A DNA stretch of 64,000 nt from Methanoculleus chikugoensis. Lineage in GTDB: Archaea; Halobacteriota; Methanomicrobia; Methanomicrobiales; Methanoculleaceae. This document shows positions 14,372-53,125 of the stretch, in pieces. Both the position numbers and the translations under genes were made by a program. The stretch covers positions 1,426,001-1,490,000 of the forward strand of contig NZ_AP019781.1 of NCBI RefSeq assembly GCF_019669965.1, read 5' to 3'. The notes under the pieces were generated by a model. That model was given only the letters and a program-made list of their open reading frames with translations. It ran no database searches and had not been told where the DNA came from. Numbering within the stretch: the stretch's first letter is position 1; each line of letters starts with the position of its first letter.

Positions 14372-14800
14372 TTACACGCGCTCATAAACACGCAGGAACT
14401 CTTCTCGAGAGATACCTGCCTGCGTGCAGATGGTTCGGAGGGTCGGGCCTTTGATTTTGGGGTGATTCGGCATCGTGAGCGGCGTCGTTGTGCCGTCCGA
14501 ATTGCTGCGGATGTGGGCATCCCAAAACACCTTCGCCGGGAGGGGGACACCCCCTCCCGGTCCCACCCCCGCGTGGCGATATCCAGTGGAAAGCCGTTTC
14601 ACCCTTCTTGCATCAAATATGGTTCAGATGGCAGAACCCTTAGGGGAAAGTGTTTCGATATGGGTATACTGGAGGTTCATAGATCTTTTTATGGCAACCT
14701 TGATTAGTGCGATATGGTTGCCCGTCCTGACAACCTGAAAACCGAGCGCTTCCAGCGTTTTCAGCACCTTCCGCTGGGGCGCATCGTGTGGGAACTTCAT
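14372..14800 (-). pseudogene. hicA: HicA toxin interrupted by a 189-bp insertion
   Basis: From ATG 14800 the frame reads MKFPHDAPQRKVLKTLEALG and continues to NHIALI, then enters foreign sequence and stops. The remainder, SDGTTTPLTMPNHPKIKGPT and on to EEFLRVYERV, resumes at about 14510 and ends at 14372. Removing 14513-14701 plus one copy of the flanking GAT restores an uninterrupted 78-residue HicA. HicA toxins are small double-stranded RNA-binding mRNA interferases; the N-terminal and C-terminal halves of the fold lie on opposite sides of the insertion. The ATG follows the hicB stop immediately. Confidence 0.82.
14513..14701. mobile_element. 189-bp non-coding insertion element with 3-bp target duplication
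   Basis: This DNA splits hicA exactly and is flanked by GAT at 14510-14512 and at 14702-14704. The pre-insertion site can be rebuilt in frame. It encodes nothing. Its ends are GTGGGCATCC and, on the other strand, AAGGTTGCCAT, only loosely inverted. Its core (about 14535-14600: AGGGGGACACCCCCTCCC, then CCACCCCC, then GTGGCGATATCCAGTGGAAA) resembles the large GC-rich repeats at 26.1, 37.1 and 52.5 kb. It looks like a non-autonomous mobile element. Confidence 0.72.
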
Positions 14801-15018
14801 CTATACGGCAACTTCGGCGACGAAGGTCTCCATGATGTCATTGTTCTCGAACGCATCGTTCCCGAAGGTCTCTATGTGAAACTGTATGGCAGATTTCACC
14901 TCGGTAAGCGCCTCTTCGTAAGGTTGTCCCCCTCTGCAACGACGACACCCTTCAGACCCAGAGGGTAGGCGACATAGCTGTCCGGGTGTTTCTCGACGAT
15001 GATTTTTAAGGTCTTCAT
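14801..15018 (-). pseudogene. hicB: HicB antitoxin with a one-base frameshift
   Basis: From ATG 15018, preceded by GGGGAGATGA, the frame reads MKTLKIIVEKHPDSYVAYPL and continues to GVVVAEGD, then goes out of frame at about 14925. One base further the HicB fold continues as PYEEALTEVKSAIQFHIETF to a TAG at 14801. Adding a single base restores a 72-residue HicB with the usual GD.YEEAL..V..AI pattern. HicB binds and neutralises HicA and represses its own operon. Both members of this pair are damaged. Confidence 0.75.
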
Positions 15019-16926: not shown

Positions 16927-17130
16927 ATGAGACTGCGTGTAGTGCTCGAACCCAGTGAGGAAGGGGGATATACGGTCTATGTACCAAGCCTTCCCGGCTG
17001 TATCAGCGAGGGCGATACGAGGGAAGAGGCATTGGAAAATATCAGGGAAGCTATCGAGCTGTATCTCGAAGTCGTTGAGGATGATCTCGTTTGTAGTGAA
17101 ACAGCCGAGCAGGTTGAGATTGCCGTATGA
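16927..17130 (+). CDS. hicB: HicB-family antitoxin
   Basis: A 67-residue HicB antitoxin. VVLEPSEEGGYTVYVPSLPG and CISEGDTREEALENIREAIE are the complete HicB partial RNase H-like core. There is no additional DNA-binding domain, so repression would depend on the small fold alone or on another factor. A TATA box about 25-30 bases upstream makes the mRNA nearly leaderless. The gene overlaps the HicA gene by ATGA, giving coupled translation. In this pair the antitoxin comes first, as in the broken pair 2 kb away. Confidence 0.9.
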   Translation: MRLRVVLEPSEEGGYTVYVPSLPGCISEGDTREEALENIREAIELYLEVVEDDLVCSETAEQVEIAV

Positions 17131-17354
17131 GCAAGGTGCCGGTTCTTAATTATGACAGGATCGTGATCGCTCTTCAAAGAGGTGGATGGGTTGTCGTCCG
17201 GACGCATGGCAGTCACATCCGCCTGCATAAGCGCCTGCCGGATAGAATACTCAAACTGACAGTCCCCATGCATAAGCCGATCAAGCGCTCAACGCTGTCA
17301 CACATTTTAAAACAGGCCGAGCTGACGGTCGAAGAGTTAAACGATCTGCTCTAG
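17127..17354 (+). CDS. hicA: HicA-family mRNA interferase toxin
   Basis: A 75-residue HicA toxin with the double-stranded RNA-binding fold. The catalytic His lies in THGSHIRLHKR, after the YDRIVIALQRGGWVVVR helix-strand unit, and VPMHKPIKRSTLSHILKQA is the conserved second half. HicA cleaves mRNA and tmRNA and is blocked by HicB. The pair appears intact, unlike the neighbouring hicBA at 14.4-15.0 kb. Confidence 0.9.
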   Translation: MSKVPVLNYDRIVIALQRGGWVVVRTHGSHIRLHKRLPDRILKLTVPMHKPIKRSTLSHILKQAELTVEELNDLL

Positions 17355-17477: not shown

Positions 17478-20400
17478 TCACCCGATCAGCTTCACCAGCC
17501 CGTGCCGGGGTTCGAGCACCTCGCCGCCGCGCTTGAGCTGCTCGAGGGTGTGCTCGACCTTGTCGCGGGAGAATCCCTGCTGCACCAGAATCTCGATCAC
17601 CTCGTCGACCCGCGCCTGGCCGCCGGAGTCGCCCGAGACGTTCCGGATCGTCTCCTTCACCGAGCGGATGATGTCGCGCTGCGACTTCGTGACCCCGGTC
17701 ACGAGCTTGTCGATATCGAAACTCCCGCTCTCTGCGTCGTAGGCCACCTGCCGGAGACAGGCATCCACGATCTTTAATATCCGGTCGGTATCCTCCGTAT
17801 CGACGGTGTTCGAGAGCCGCATCCTCGCGCTCGCCTCCGCAAGCCGGACCAGCGCCTCGAGCTGCCGGGCGGTGACCGGGACGGGCTTGTTCCCGCTCGC
17901 GAGGTTCCGCAGGCGCATGTAGTAGGCGATCAGCGCCTCCTTCGCCCCGTCGGAGAGGATGGGGAAGCACGTCCGTTTCGCGTAGGCGATGTACTTCCGT
18001 AAGAGTGTCGGGTCGATGTCAGGGATGACCGGCGCAAGCGCCCGTTCGATGTACTCGTCGTCGACATCGGGCAGCGGCTCGTACGCGTGCTGCTTGATCA
18101 ACTCGCCCACGCTGTGGGTCTTGATGATGTGTTGCGCAATCGCCCCGTCGCGCTCGGCCTCCGGCTGATCGGTCATCACGAAGATGAGGTCGAACCGGGA
18201 GAGGAGCGACGGCGGCATGTTGATCTGCTCGCCGATCGGAACGAACTGGTCGAACCGCCCGAGTTTCGGGTTAGCGGCGCCGAGGAGGGCGCACCGGGAC
18301 TTCAGGGTCGCGGTGATGCCGGCTTTTGCGACCGAGATCGAGTTGCCACACCAGACCGGGATGCCGTTTCGCCGCACGTAGAGGGTGTGGTTCGGGACCT
18401 CAAGGCAGTAGATCGTGCCCTTATACGGGCGCTTCTCGATATGCTGCTTTCCGTTTGTGTTGATGTTCGGCTCGTTCTGGCCGTCGCGGATGAACGTCAC
18501 CTGGAAGACGTCGTGGGTCACGGTCGAGGTCCCGCCCCGCGGGTTGGATACGACCTCCCCGGCCTCCCGCAATCGATAGGTGTTCCCCGACCACCCCTTC
18601 TTCAGCAGGAGCTCGGTGACGTCGTCGACGAGCTTCTTCGAAGAGGTCGTGTATATCGAGACTCCGGTCGTTTTGTTGACGTAGCCGTCCCCGAGCATGA
18701 GCGCGTCGAGGAGTATCCCGATCTGCTCCGGGGGTAGGCTCTTCGCGTAGCCGGGGACGTACTTCTCGTGGCATTTGCCGAACGGCGTAAGATGTTCTGC
18801 GAGTTGCTTTGCGTTGATCGCGAAGTTCTTCCCATCGTAGGAGAACCGGAACGGCAGCCGTTCGAGACACTGCCGGATCGTTTCGGCAGACTCAGGGTTC
18901 GTCTGCGATATGATCACGCGGTAAGGAACCCCCGTCTGGTAGTGGCACTGAACCGACCCTTCCGAGAGGAAGTAGCCCAGGAACTCAAGCCAGTCGTCCA
19001 TCCCGACCGTGACAGGATCGGTAAGTTTTCCTTCCGAGTTCTGGTTCGCGAACTTGACGACGGGCGGAATCTCGTAGGTCTCCTGCCGTTCCCCCGTCCA
19101 TACGGCGTTCTTCTTGAACCGCATCCTCTTGTGGATGGGGATCTCGTCCATGCGGACGAGCCGGAACCCCTCCCACTCGTCGGCGCGCCGGTTCAGGTTG
19201 ACGTACATCCGGTGGTTCGGCGTGACCGCGAGGTCGACCTGCCGTGATCTGACGTAGTACAACTCCCCGTCATACTCCGACGCCACGAAGTTCGACGGCG
19301 ATGCGTACTCCAGCCTGCCGTCGGGAGAGAGCGTCGCGACACGATCGTCCGCGGTCACGTCGCGGAAGAATTTCCACCCGCTCTCCGTGAGGACCTCCGT
19401 CTTGTCGTCGTAGCACTGCTGCTCCATCGCCTCATGGAGTGCGCTCCGGTCCTCCTTTGCCATCTTGTCCATCTCGTCGACGGCGGCGATCCCCATATCC
19501 GCGAGGACCAGCGCACCGGCTTCGAGCGTCCACCGCCCGTCGCCGAACTCGTCCTTGACCGCCGTCGCCGTCAACCCGGCGGAGGTCGACGACTTGCCGC
19601 TCGTGTAGATCCCGCGGGGCGAGAGTTTCACGACGTACCGCAAGATCTGACTCTTTGCGATACCCGGGTCGCCGACCAGGAGGACGTGGACGTCGCCGCG
19701 GAGGCGGGAGCCGTCCGGCATATCTTTCGCGATCCCGCCGAAGAGCTGGAGCGCGATCGCCTCCTTCACGTCGTCGGTGCCGTAGATCGTCGGCGCGATC
19801 GACCGGGCGATCTTCTTGTAGATCATCGGGTCGCGGGCGAGCGCCATGATCTTCGTCTCGTCCTCCTCGGTGATCGAGACCTCCTCGAACTCCTTCTCGG
19901 CAACCTCGATGGAGTTGCACTCGAGGTAGATGTCAAAGAGCGTGCTCTTCTGGCCGTAGTTGATCCTCTGCACCGACCGGAGGATGCCGTTCACCACCAC
20001 CCGGTCGCCCGGCGAGACCATCCCGGTAAGGTCGTCGGTGACGTCGATATCGAGCGTCTGGGGCTGTTCCCCGCCCCGAAGGCCTTCCGGGGACTCCTGG
20101 ATCCGGAGTTTCTGGGCGTCGACGAACCTGCACCGGTTCATGACGAGATCGAGACGGGTCTTCCTCTCGCAGTTCGGACAGAAGTCGGGCTCGTCGAACC
20201 GCCCGTAGCCCTGGGGTACCGGGTCGGTGTTCTTGTCGCAGGAGCGGCACCGGAAGACCGCGGTGACGATCCGGGGGCGGACCTCCGTGGTCTTTCGGAG
20301 GATCCCCTCGATGGCGACGAAGGTGTTGATCTGGTCCGCCCGGATGTCGCGGACGTTCGTCTTCTGCGGCAGGTTCGTGAACCGGATGTTGACGAGATCC

Positions 20401-20657
20401 GGGTCCTGGCCATCCTTCAGTTTGAGGAGTTTGTTCTGGACGATCGCGTCCTTGATATCCCCGATGACCTTCCCCGGACTCCTCAGGAGTTCAAATGCCA
20501 ACCTGTTGTTCAGGATCTTGCGGTAGTCGATGATGAGTGAGTGGTTGTGCGGGTACTCGCGGGAGAGTTCGGCAAGCTCGCGCTTGTACTGTTTCTTCAG
20601 AAACTTCGTCCACTCACCGACGTTATCGGTGACTTCGACGGTTATCTCTTCGGTCAA
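17478..20657 (-). CDS. mcm: Replicative minichromosome maintenance helicase MCM, intein-containing
   Basis: A 1059-residue precursor; after removal of a 358-residue intein the helicase is about 701 residues, the usual archaeal length. The N-terminal domain includes a zinc-binding CRSC...CPNC motif near residues 138-166. The AAA+ core shows Walker A VGDPGIAKSQ, Walker B AAVDEMDKM and the SRFDLIFVM arginine-finger region, with a winged helix at the C-terminus. The start is TTG 20657, eight bases after the rfcS stop with GAGGACT before it; upstream in-frame codons would extend into rfcS. It unwinds DNA at replication forks and is cotranscribed with its clamp-loader subunit. Confidence 0.93.
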   Translation of the reverse strand: MTEEITVEVTDNVGEWTKFLKKQYKRELAELSREYPHNHSLIIDYRKILNNRLAFELLRSPGKVIGDIKDAIVQNKLLKLKDGQDPDLVNIRFTNLPQKTNVRDIRADQINTFVAIEGILRKTTEVRPRIVTAVFRCRSCDKNTDPVPQGYGRFDEPDFCPNCERKTRLDLVMNRCRFVDAQKLRIQESPEGLRGGEQPQTLDIDVTDDLTGMVSPGDRVVVNGILRSVQRINYGQKSTLFDIYLECNSIEVAEKEFEEVSITEEDETKIMALARDPMIYKKIARSIAPTIYGTDDVKEAIALQLFGGIAKDMPDGSRLRGDVHVLLVGDPGIAKSQILRYVVKLSPRGIYTSGKSSTSAGLTATAVKDEFGDGRWTLEAGALVLADMGIAAVDEMDKMAKEDRSALHEAMEQQCYDDKTEVLTESGWKFFRDVTADDRVATLSPDGRLEYASPSNFVASEYDGELYYVRSRQVDLAVTPNHRMYVNLNRRADEWEGFRLVRMDEIPIHKRMRFKKNAVWTGERQETYEIPPVVKFANQNSEGKLTDPVTVGMDDWLEFLGYFLSEGSVQCHYQTGVPYRVIISQTNPESAETIRQCLERLPFRFSYDGKNFAINAKQLAEHLTPFGKCHEKYVPGYAKSLPPEQIGILLDALMLGDGYVNKTTGVSIYTTSSKKLVDDVTELLLKKGWSGNTYRLREAGEVVSNPRGGTSTVTHDVFQVTFIRDGQNEPNINTNGKQHIEKRPYKGTIYCLEVPNHTLYVRRNGIPVWCGNSISVAKAGITATLKSRCALLGAANPKLGRFDQFVPIGEQINMPPSLLSRFDLIFVMTDQPEAERDGAIAQHIIKTHSVGELIKQHAYEPLPDVDDEYIERALAPVIPDIDPTLLRKYIAYAKRTCFPILSDGAKEALIAYYMRLRNLASGNKPVPVTARQLEALVRLAEASARMRLSNTVDTEDTDRILKIVDACLRQVAYDAESGSFDIDKLVTGVTKSQRDIIRSVKETIRNVSGDSGGQARVDEVIEILVQQGFSRDKVEHTLEQLKRGGEVLEPRHGLVKLIG
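18342..19415 (-). other. Intein with LAGLIDADG homing endonuclease inside MCM
   Basis: A 358-residue in-frame insertion in MCM after EAMEQQ and before SISVAKAG, just after Walker B. It starts with Cys (CYDDKTEVLTESGWKFF, block A), has TPNH in block B (DLAVTPNHRMYV), and ends with YCLEVPNHTLYVRRNG and VWCGN, followed by Ser as the +1 nucleophile. Two LAGLIDADG-like helices, FLGYFLSEGS and LLDALMLGDGY, indicate a homing endonuclease. The residue before the terminal Asn is Gly, not the usual His. Confidence 0.92.
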
Positions 20658-20667
20658 GACGGAGTCC

Positions 20668-21642
20668 TCAGCGGTGCTGCTCTGCGGCGAGGACGAACCG
20701 CGCGAGCAGCGCCTCCATCTGGATATCGCTGCTCGCCCCTTCCGAGAGGCGGAAATCGGTCTCACCGAGGGCGTCGATCAGTTTCACTTTGAGCGTCCGG
20801 TCAATATCGCGCTGGACCAGCGCCCGGTAGCACTGGTTGATCAGCTCGTTCGGGGCGATGCCGCGGCCGCGGGTCAGATCGGAGAGCGCTTGCTCCGCCT
20901 CGTCGAACTTCCCCGCTATCGAGAGGTCGAGGAGTTCATCGATCTCGTCCGGGCGGGCGGTCGCGGTGATCGCGTAGACCGTCTCCTCGTCGATATCCTT
21001 CCGGACGATCGCGGCACCCTGCAGGGCGTTGATCGCCTTCCTCATATCCCCCGAGGCGACGTAGACGATGGCGTCGAGCGCACCCTGTGTGACCGTGAGG
21101 CCTTCGGCCGCGGCAATCCTCCTGGTCTCCTCGATGACCGCCTCCCGGTCAAGCGGCCTGAACCGGTAGATGGCGCACCGGCTCTGGATGGGGTCGATGA
21201 TCTTCGAGGAGTAGTTGCACGAGAGGATGAACCGGCAGGTTCGGGCGTAGGTCTCCATCGTCCGCCGGAGAGCTGCCTGCGCGTCCGTGGTGAGCGCGTC
21301 CGCCTCATCCAGGAAGAGGATCTTGAACGTCGCGCCGGCAAGCGGCGACGTCCGGGCAAACTCCTTGATCTGGTTCCGGACGACGTCGATTCCCCGTTCG
21401 TCGGAGGCGTTCATCTCCCGGAAGTTCATCTGCCAGGAGTCGCCGAAGAACTCCCGGGCGAGCGCCACGGCGGCGGTGGTCTTGCCGATCCCTGCGCTGC
21501 CCGTAAAAAGGAGGTGCGGCAGGTTTCCGGTCTTCACGTAGGACTGGAGGCGTACCACGATCTCCTTCTGCCCGACCATCTCGTCGAGCCTTTTGGGCCG
21601 ATACTTCTCTATCCAGATGGTGTGGTTGCCGTCCATTTGCAT
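20668..21642 (-). CDS. rfcS: Replication factor C small subunit
   Basis: A 324-residue clamp loader subunit with all canonical motifs: [16 protein letters not shown], Walker [19 protein letters not shown] Walker B, SCNYSS sensor 1, SRC arginine finger, and [11 protein letters not shown] sensor 2. With the large subunit it loads PCNA onto primed DNA. It lies upstream of mcm with an eight-base gap, so replication proteins are coexpressed. Contrast the degenerate paralogue at 7.2-8.2 kb. Confidence 0.95.
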
Positions 21643-26000: not shown

Positions 26001-26491
26001 GAGGGTTGGAGTTTGCCGGCACCTAGGGCCACCTGATGGTGGCTTTTGAGTATAGCCTGTGACTGGGGGTGGCGGCAGAAACTAGGAAAAAGCCCGGTAT
26101 AGTGGACCGTGGGAGTATCGCCATGCACTGCCCCCGCCCCGCAGGAAGGGGGAGGAGGCCGGGTGGGGTGGGGGTTATGGGTATTCCATTAATGGGGTAG
26201 AGACAGGGGAGGGGGGCACGCCCCCTCCCCGCGAGCCGCCACCCCCAATGGCGATATCCCTATGAAAGCCGTGCATGTGAACTGCGACGCAAGAACAGCA
26301 TTCTTGAGTAAGATCGGCGGCATACGCTTGATGCACGAGCCCCCTCGGATGCGGCCACCAAAATAGCCTACTTCAGGCCCGGACACTCTCCCGTCACGTA
26401 TCGGCAGAACGCCCGGAGTGACAGATCATACCCGGCCGAAAAAACAGGGGCTTCCTTCCCCCAATCCGAAAAAACGTAACCAGAAACCGTT
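26001..26491. repeat. GC-rich interspersed repeat, copy at 26.1 kb
   Basis: Between the helicase and TBP genes lies one copy of the repeat family. TATCGCCA at 26116-26123 and TGGCGATA at 26249-26256 are the inverted ends; the left end extends as a 23-base segment from 26101 that recurs inverted at 52638-52660 with one mismatch. The interior is G- and C-blocks (GGGGTAGAGACAGGGGAGGG, CCCCCTCCCC). The rest of the gap (26300-26490) shows no gene. Confidence 0.7.
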
Positions 26492-36866: not shown

Positions 36867-37498
36867 AAAAATAAGTGCTAATATGGTGCTTGTTGAGAGG
36901 CGTCAGGATCTGAGCGGCGGTCCCGGTGAATGGTGCGCCGGGCGTCTGCGGGATGAATGAAGGGGCCGGGGGTGCAAGGGGTTGCTCGGCCACTTCCTGG
37001 TGTGATTCTCCCACGGGGCGGTACGGTGACGATGTAGGGCGGGTTTTAACTCCTCTGTTGGTTGCTTCGCTCTTACCTGTTGCATATGGTGTGCACGGAT
37101 TTCCACTGGATATCGCCACGTGGGGGAAGGGCTGACGGGGAGTGCGATGTTCCGCAGGAACGGAGCTCGAGCACCGTCAGGTGGGGAGGGGGAGCATCCC
37201 CCCTCCCCTGTCTCTACCTCATAAAACTAAACTGTGACCCCCACCCCGCCCGGCCTCCTCACTCACACCTGACGGTGCTTTAACTCCTGTCGTTCCGGCA
37301 GTCGTTCCCCGCCCCAAGGGGGCGGGGGCAGTGCGTGGCGATAAGCGATGGTTCGTTACGCGACTGGCCAGAGGCCGGGAGCATGAGCACCGTGAGGTGT
37401 GCAGCCCCGCAATCCAGCGTCTCAGGCTCTGTCATCGTTTCCTTCTGGTGCATCTGGCGGCGCTCGAAATTTATTTTTCGAACCCCAACGCCCCTCCT
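36867..37498. repeat. GC-rich interspersed repeat, copy at 37.1 kb
   Basis: TATCGCCACG (37111-37120) and CGTGGCGATA (37334-37343) are perfect ten-base inverted ends of a roughly 250-bp repeat. The copy is in the opposite orientation to the one at 26.1 kb and contains CTGTCTCTACC and CCCCACCCCGCCCGGCCTCC as reversed shared blocks. A tail at about 37360-37410 (CTGGCCAGAGGCCGGGAGCA) resembles DNA after the 52.9 kb copy. There is no gene in this gap. Confidence 0.72.
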
Positions 37499-52441: not shown

Positions 52442-53125
52442 GGGTGGTTGACAGCAGGGGTTCCTGCTTTTCTTTTTAGCTGGGATTTACAGCACGAACT
52501 TGCGGCCGTGCGTACGCCCCTGCAAGAAGGGGAGAAGCACGAAGCGCGGATGGGATGGGGGCTACAGCCAGGGGTTTACATGGTAGAGACAGGGGGGGGG
52601 GGGGGGGGAACCCCCTCCCCGTCGGCCCCACCCCCAGTGGCGATACCCCCACGGTCCACTGCATGGGAGATGCTGAAGAAGAGCCGTATACGGATTTCCA
52701 TCGGCTATCGTCACGCACTGCCCCCGCCCCTCGGGGCGGGGGAGGAGGCCGAAGGCCGGGCGGGGTGGGGGCACAGGTATAGCCTTCTGGGGTAGAGACA
52801 GGGGAGGGGGGATGCTCCCCCTCCCCACCTGACGGTGGTCGAGCTCCGTTCCTCCGGAACGTCGCACCTCGCACCTAACGGTGCTCGAGCTCGCTGCGCT
52901 CGCACTCCCCGCGAGCCGCCACCCCCAATGGCGATATGCGACTGGCCGAAGGGCAGGAGCACGAGCACCTAAGGTGCGCAGCCACCACGGTCCACTGTAC
53001 CGGGCTCTATACTCGCTAGACTGTGTTACCTGATGTCGCAGGCGCGAAAAACGACGCCCTGTAGCGATCTCAGGGTCAACCGCCACAAAACATGAGCCCA
53101 GGGGGAAGCGAACCCCCGGGCTCGC
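52442..53125. repeat. Cluster of GC-rich interspersed repeats at 52.5-53.0 kb
   Basis: At least two repeat copies lie here. One ends at the 23-base segment 52638-52660, matching (inverted) the left end of the 26.1 kb copy. A second lies between TATCGTCACG (52706-52715) and TGGCGATA (52929-52936) and contains GGGGTAGAGACAGGGGAGGG and CCTGACGGTGG blocks. A run of 17 G residues occupies 52592-52608. No protein-coding signal is seen. Confidence 0.72.

What the first reader, a model, noticed from the sequence alone, without database searches (positions are those of the whole stretch)
14372..14800. A 189-bp element split hicA and can be excised exactly on paper
The frame on both sides of 14513-14701 encodes complementary halves of HicA. 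Deleting the segment plus one copy of the GAT duplication (14510-14512 / 14702-14704) restores a continuous 78-residue toxin. This gives both element boundaries and a 3-bp target duplication from sequence alone. The element has no gene, and its core resembles the larger GC-rich repeats, so it may show how this repeat family moves. The paired hicB also has a one-base deletion.
Basis: seen in the sequence. Interest (0 to 1): 0.72.

Follow-up and report, generated by a model that had tools for sequence, protein, structure and literature searches.

The report
Archaeal mini-transposon that split hicA
A 189-bp gene-less mini-transposon, one of a large family scattered through Methanoculleus genomes, inserted into a toxin-antitoxin gene and broke it; this is an ordinary kind of event, but remnants of the same insertion sit at the same base in two more distant species while closer relatives lack it.

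Summary
Window 14513-14701 interrupts hicA: the flanking pieces match complementary parts of the HicA profile, and seven close Methanoculleus relatives have an uninterrupted 78-residue HicA lacking exactly the 189 bp plus one GAT. The segment belongs to a dispersed gene-less family found in 31 of 35 held genomes of the genus. Its ends are inverted repeats (GARGTYGTCCCAAAA), its commonest length is 189 bp, and it makes exact 3-bp target duplications (38 of 97 candidate copies; shuffled pairing averages 2.6, at most 9). It is a MITE. The likely mobiliser is an 844-bp IS5-family element (DUF4096 plus DDE_Tnp_1) with related ends and 3-bp duplications; one copy lies in this genome. Corrections: hicB has a net 2-base insertion relative to relatives, not a one-base deletion; the larger GC-rich repeats in the window share only the core and lack the MITE ends. 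One puzzle remains: two more distant species carry decayed remnants at the same base, with a left end seen in no other copy, while closer species are empty. Lateral exchange of hicAB alleles, seen directly among four species, is the likeliest reason. New member of a known kind.

The parts
14513..14701 (.). MITE, 189 bp, no gene
   Evidence: Full-length alignment of 16 copies; absent from the orthologous site in seven relatives; modal family length 189
14513..14528 (+). left terminal inverted repeat GTGGGCATCCCAAAAC (family GARGTYGTCCCAAAAC)
14686..14701 (-). right terminal inverted repeat, diverged (reads AAGGTTGCCATAAAAA inwards; family GAGGTYRTCCCAAAAA)
14536..14560 (.). GC hairpin inside the MITE, 11-bp perfect stem, 3-base loop
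   Evidence: (I4)
14510..14512 (.). target duplication GAT, left copy
   Evidence: single copy in the empty sites
14702..14704 (.). target duplication GAT, right copy
14702..14800 (-). 5' (N-terminal) piece of hicA
   Evidence: PF07927 positions 2-25
14372..14512 (-). 3' (C-terminal) piece of hicA
   Evidence: PF07927 positions 22-58
14801..15018 (-). hicB, frameshifted by a net 2-base gain at about 14919-14926
   Evidence: relatives have an open HicB of about 71 residues directly before hicA

Best explanation
The segment is a MITE: a non-autonomous DNA transposon of about 189 bp with terminal inverted repeats and no gene. A DDE transposase acting in trans recognised its ends and inserted it into the hicA coding sequence after a staggered cut, leaving a 3-bp duplication (GAT). 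The likely source of the transposase is an IS5-family element of 844 bp (DUF4096 plus DDE_Tnp_1 in two overlapping frames), whose copies in the genus have similar outermost ends and also leave 3-bp duplications. The insertion broke hicA. Shown: boundaries, duplication, empty sites, dispersed family, family-wide 3-bp duplications, and an IS with similar ends and the same duplication length. Inferred: that this IS, rather than another with the same ends, moves the MITE; that hicA is non-functional; and that the occupied and empty alleles were spread among species by lateral exchange.
For: Complementary HicA profile matches; empty sites with single GAT in seven relatives; 31 of 35 genus genomes carry the family; inverted ends in aligned full-length copies; 38 of 97 candidate copies with exact 3-bp duplication against 2.6 expected from shuffled pairing (maximum 9), with 2-bp matches 5 and 4-bp matches 0; clean set 33 of 59, modal length 189; IS5-family element with ends GAGGTSATCCYA and 3-bp duplications in 9 of 13 copies by inspection; one IS copy whose left end is GAGGTCGTCCCAAA; a MITE in a related genus with an IS-type end GAGGTCATCCCAATACTCTC next to the same GC hairpin.
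Against: The IS ends agree with the MITE ends only over about the outer 12 bases, mostly with 1-2 differences, and no internal sequence is shared. The ends of the hicA copy are diverged and its nearest copy in its own genome is only 74% identical, so its direct source is not identified. The insertion pattern does not follow the species tree.
Confidence: 0.85

Rival explanations
1. The element inserted once in an older ancestor and was later lost precisely (element plus one GAT) in several lineages, restoring hicA.
For: Remnants at the same base in G018 and G034 with a left end found at no other locus, while the trees place these species outside the empty group.
Against: Needs several exact losses. 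hicA pieces are little eroded: 5 synonymous and 3 non-synonymous codon changes here, 8 and 3 in the G018 piece. The element differs by about 10% between this genome and G018 against 24% at four-fold sites, so sharing looks younger than the species split.
Confidence: 0.2
2. Independent insertions of the same MITE subfamily at the same base in three lineages (a hotspot).
For: A weak palindromic target preference exists; hicA looks recently broken in each lineage.
Against: Triplets at target sites vary widely and the preference is weak. The three copies share a left end (GT) seen at no other locus and the same orientation.
Confidence: 0.12
3. The MITE is moved by a transposase other than the IS5-family element described here.
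For: Ends match only partly; the most common MITE end (GAAGTTGTCCCAAAA) was not found on an intact IS.
Against: Same 3-bp duplication and same outermost bases; an IS copy with the MITE-type left end exists.
Confidence: 0.25
4. Not a transposon but a REP-like or recombination-spread GC hairpin repeat.
For: It contains a perfect GC hairpin, and similar hairpins occur in other families of the order.
Against: Inverted ends, fixed length and exact 3-bp duplications across the family are signs of DDE transposition.
Confidence: 0.03

Closest known systems
Prokaryotic MITEs (reviewed in PMC10969869)
   Same: Short, gene-less, terminal inverted repeats, target duplications, many copies, insertional inactivation of genes.
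   Different: No report for Methanoculleus or Methanomicrobiales found in the held papers; this family has a GC hairpin next to the left end that is enlarged in many copies.
IS5 family, DUF4096-type element with two overlapping frames (resembles the IS427/IS1031 groups, from own knowledge)
   Same: Outer end bases GAGGTCRTCCCA and 3-bp duplications; present in the same genomes.
   Different: The MITE has no transposase and shares no internal sequence with the IS beyond the ends.
Nezha MITE of cyanobacteria (from own knowledge; named in PMC10969869)
   Same: As I recall, also a MITE with 3-bp duplications related to an IS5-type element.
   Different: No sequence comparison made; different hosts.

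Membership tests
MITE | terminal inverted repeats | tested here: met
   GARGTYGTCCCAAAA at both ends of aligned copies; in the hicA copy itself they are diverged
MITE | target duplication of fixed length | tested here: met
   3 bp: 38 of 97, shuffled mean 2.6, maximum 9; GAT at hicA against empty sites
MITE | short, without a transposase gene | tested here: met
   189 bp; the frames in it are read-through of the hicA pieces and chance
MITE | multiple dispersed copies | tested here: met
   48 matches in own genome, many partial; 31 of 35 genus genomes
MITE | an autonomous partner with the same ends | tested here: inconclusive
   IS5-family element with similar but not identical ends
MITE | mobilised in trans | not testable with these tools
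   needs a transposition assay
IS5 family (candidate partner) | DUF4096 and DDE_Tnp_1 domains | tested here: met
   PF13340 75.2 bits, PF01609 67.7 bits
IS5 family (candidate partner) | subgroup assignment in ISfinder | not tested
   ISfinder not available
HicA | PF07927 domain next to hicB | tested here: met
   complementary pieces; intact hicB and 78-aa hicA in relatives

The most novel reading that the evidence does not exclude
At one toxin-antitoxin locus, occupied (broken) and empty (intact) hicA alleles circulate among Methanoculleus species by recombination or by repeated precise excision, so that a MITE acts as a reversible switch of a toxin gene across species.
Probability: 0.12. Interest if true: 0.65.

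Novelty: new member of a known kind. Interest (0 to 1): 0.36.

Why it matters
It defines, with ends, length, duplication and a candidate mobiliser, a large MITE family in a methanogen genus. It also gives a base-exact marker at a toxin-antitoxin locus where gene exchange between species can be read directly. The mismatch between the insertion and the species tree makes precise excision versus lateral transfer testable by sequencing more strains.

Tried and rejected
Rfam scan of the window: only archaeal RNase P, nothing at the element. Structured-RNA or ssDNA reading: the whole-element fold is only weakly better than shuffles for this copy (z -1.89) and not for L237:301-489 (z -0.45); through a strand slip the latter held about 151 bases of a canonical copy plus flank, and the query had the same slip (its hits hold for that part). 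Search for an IS carrying exactly the MITE end: most exact ends belong to gene-less copies. One MITE left end (L165/L181) is followed by a 547-aa transposase gene, but this looks like a second element nested in the GC hairpin, so it was not taken as the mobiliser. GTGG-like ends elsewhere in G018 and G034 turned out to be unrelated genes. A first four-fold-site estimate used a wrong frame for one gene and is superseded. Plasmid collection: no match. Donor-like bases beside the element in this genome, expected after transfer from a G018-like donor, were looked for and not found.

Full report
Observation. The segment 14513-14701 lies inside hicA on the minus strand. The pieces were searched apart: 14702-14800 matches PF07927 positions 2-25 and 14372-14515 matches positions 22-58. 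In seven close relatives the two pieces are contiguous and the alignments overlap by exactly the 3 bp GAT; the gene of one of them (G007) is an intact 78-residue HicA, and its empty site reads GCGGATAAGCGCG. Boundaries and duplication are therefore shown by comparison with natural empty sites. hicB is frameshifted by a net gain of two bases, not by a one-base loss.

What it is. The element has 48 matches in its own genome, many of them partial, and matches in 31 of 35 genomes of the genus. Record titles at the same locus identify the genus as Methanoculleus. Sixteen full-length copies align from end to end, and similarity stops at inverted ends with consensus GARGTYGTCCCAAAA. Among 97 candidate copies, some of them spurious, 38 have identical 3-bp flanks; shuffled pairing gives 2.6 on average and 9 at most, while 2-bp matches number 5 and 4-bp matches 0. 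In the clean subset 33 of 59 have the duplication and 25 of 59 are exactly 189 bp. That is a MITE. The hicA copy has the modal length but diverged ends.

How it moves. Exact copies of the MITE end mostly bound gene-less elements. The best candidate mobiliser is an IS5-family element of about 844 bp with PF13340 and PF01609 in two overlapping frames. Its ends are GAGGTSATCCYA, it leaves 3-bp duplications in 9 of 13 copies by inspection, and one copy begins with the MITE-type end GAGGTCGTCCCAAA. One copy lies in this genome at about G000:C1:2009072-2009915, without a visible duplication. In a related genus a MITE carries an IS-type end joined to the same kind of GC hairpin. The pairing of IS and MITE is inferred, not shown.

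Target. Flanks of copies with a duplication show a weak palindromic preference (W R W N, three duplicated bases, N W Y W) and no fixed triplet.

The puzzle. G018 and G034 carry remnants of the element at the same base of hicA. Their left end begins GT, as here; of 81 scored copies 72 begin GA, and no other locus with this GT end was found in the genus. The G018 copy is the closest relative of this one. Yet trees of MCM and of the flanking genes, only moderately resolved, place G018 and G034 outside the group that holds this genome and most of the empty species. The element differs by about 10% between this genome and G018, while four-fold sites differ by 24%, and the hicA pieces are little eroded. 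The shared insertion therefore looks younger than the species split. Lateral exchange at this locus is directly visible in the empty alleles: G005, G007, G008 and G012 differ at 0-1 positions per 150 bp over most of about 450-600 bp of hicAB, but mostly at about 5-20 per 150 bp on the hicA side of it. Movement of occupied and empty alleles between species is therefore the likeliest reason for the mismatch. However, no donor-like flank was found beside the element in this genome, so precise excision or recurrent insertion cannot be excluded.

The larger repeats. Copies in the window at about 26.1, 36.9 and 52.7 kb share the GC hairpin and the GTGGCGATATCC box with the MITE. They lack its ends, and these three have an inverted arm of their own, TATCGYCAYGCACTGCCCCC against CRTGGCGATA. 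In other genomes, copies with MITE ends have grown to 280-710 bp by extra hairpin-rich sequence at the GC hairpin. Whether the large repeats move in the same way is not shown.

Verdict. Real, well bounded, and of a known kind: a MITE insertion in a toxin-antitoxin gene. The family appears undescribed in the papers available here, and the cross-species pattern is the part worth following.

Noticed in passing
window 26115-26260, about 37108-37345 (-), 52705-52939: Larger GC-rich repeats with inverted arms (TATCGYCAYGCACTGCCCCC ... CRTGGCGATA) that share the GC hairpin and the GTGGCGATATCC box with the MITE but lack its ends.
   Followed up: partly
L082-L085, 1501-2100: Intact hicAB is nearly identical (0-1 differences per 150 bp over most of it) in four species whose flanks on the hicA side differ mostly by 5-20 per 150 bp: a sharply bounded tract of recent lateral exchange.
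   Followed up: partly
L089 1642-1885, L097 1564-1720, L162 461-1170, L178 462-837: Small palindromes (such as GCACCTTCGGTGC, GAAGAACTTCGTTCTTC, GGTTCGTAGAACC) are inserted at or near the GC hairpin of MITE copies, enlarging them; the same palindromes recur in the large GC-rich repeats.
   Followed up: partly
L165 489-2325 (same place as L181): A MITE left end and GC hairpin are followed by a 547-aa transposase gene that seems to be a second element nested in the hairpin; gene-less copies of the nested part appear in L161 and L162.
   Followed up: partly
window 16927-17354 (+): A second, intact hicB-hicA pair lies 2 kb from the broken one (HicA 55 bits, HicB_lk_antitox 50 bits).
   Followed up: no
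window 17478-20765 (-): The MCM helicase frame is 1095 aa long and seems to hold an intein (read from the translation); several genus members match only part of the stretch that includes it.
   Followed up: no
L284-L292 (other families of the order): A GC palindrome of about 35 nt (CGGGAGGGGGACACCCCCTCCCGGACCCTCCCCCG) recurs at 94-97% identity in several other Methanomicrobiales genomes, mostly without recognisable MITE ends.
   Followed up: no
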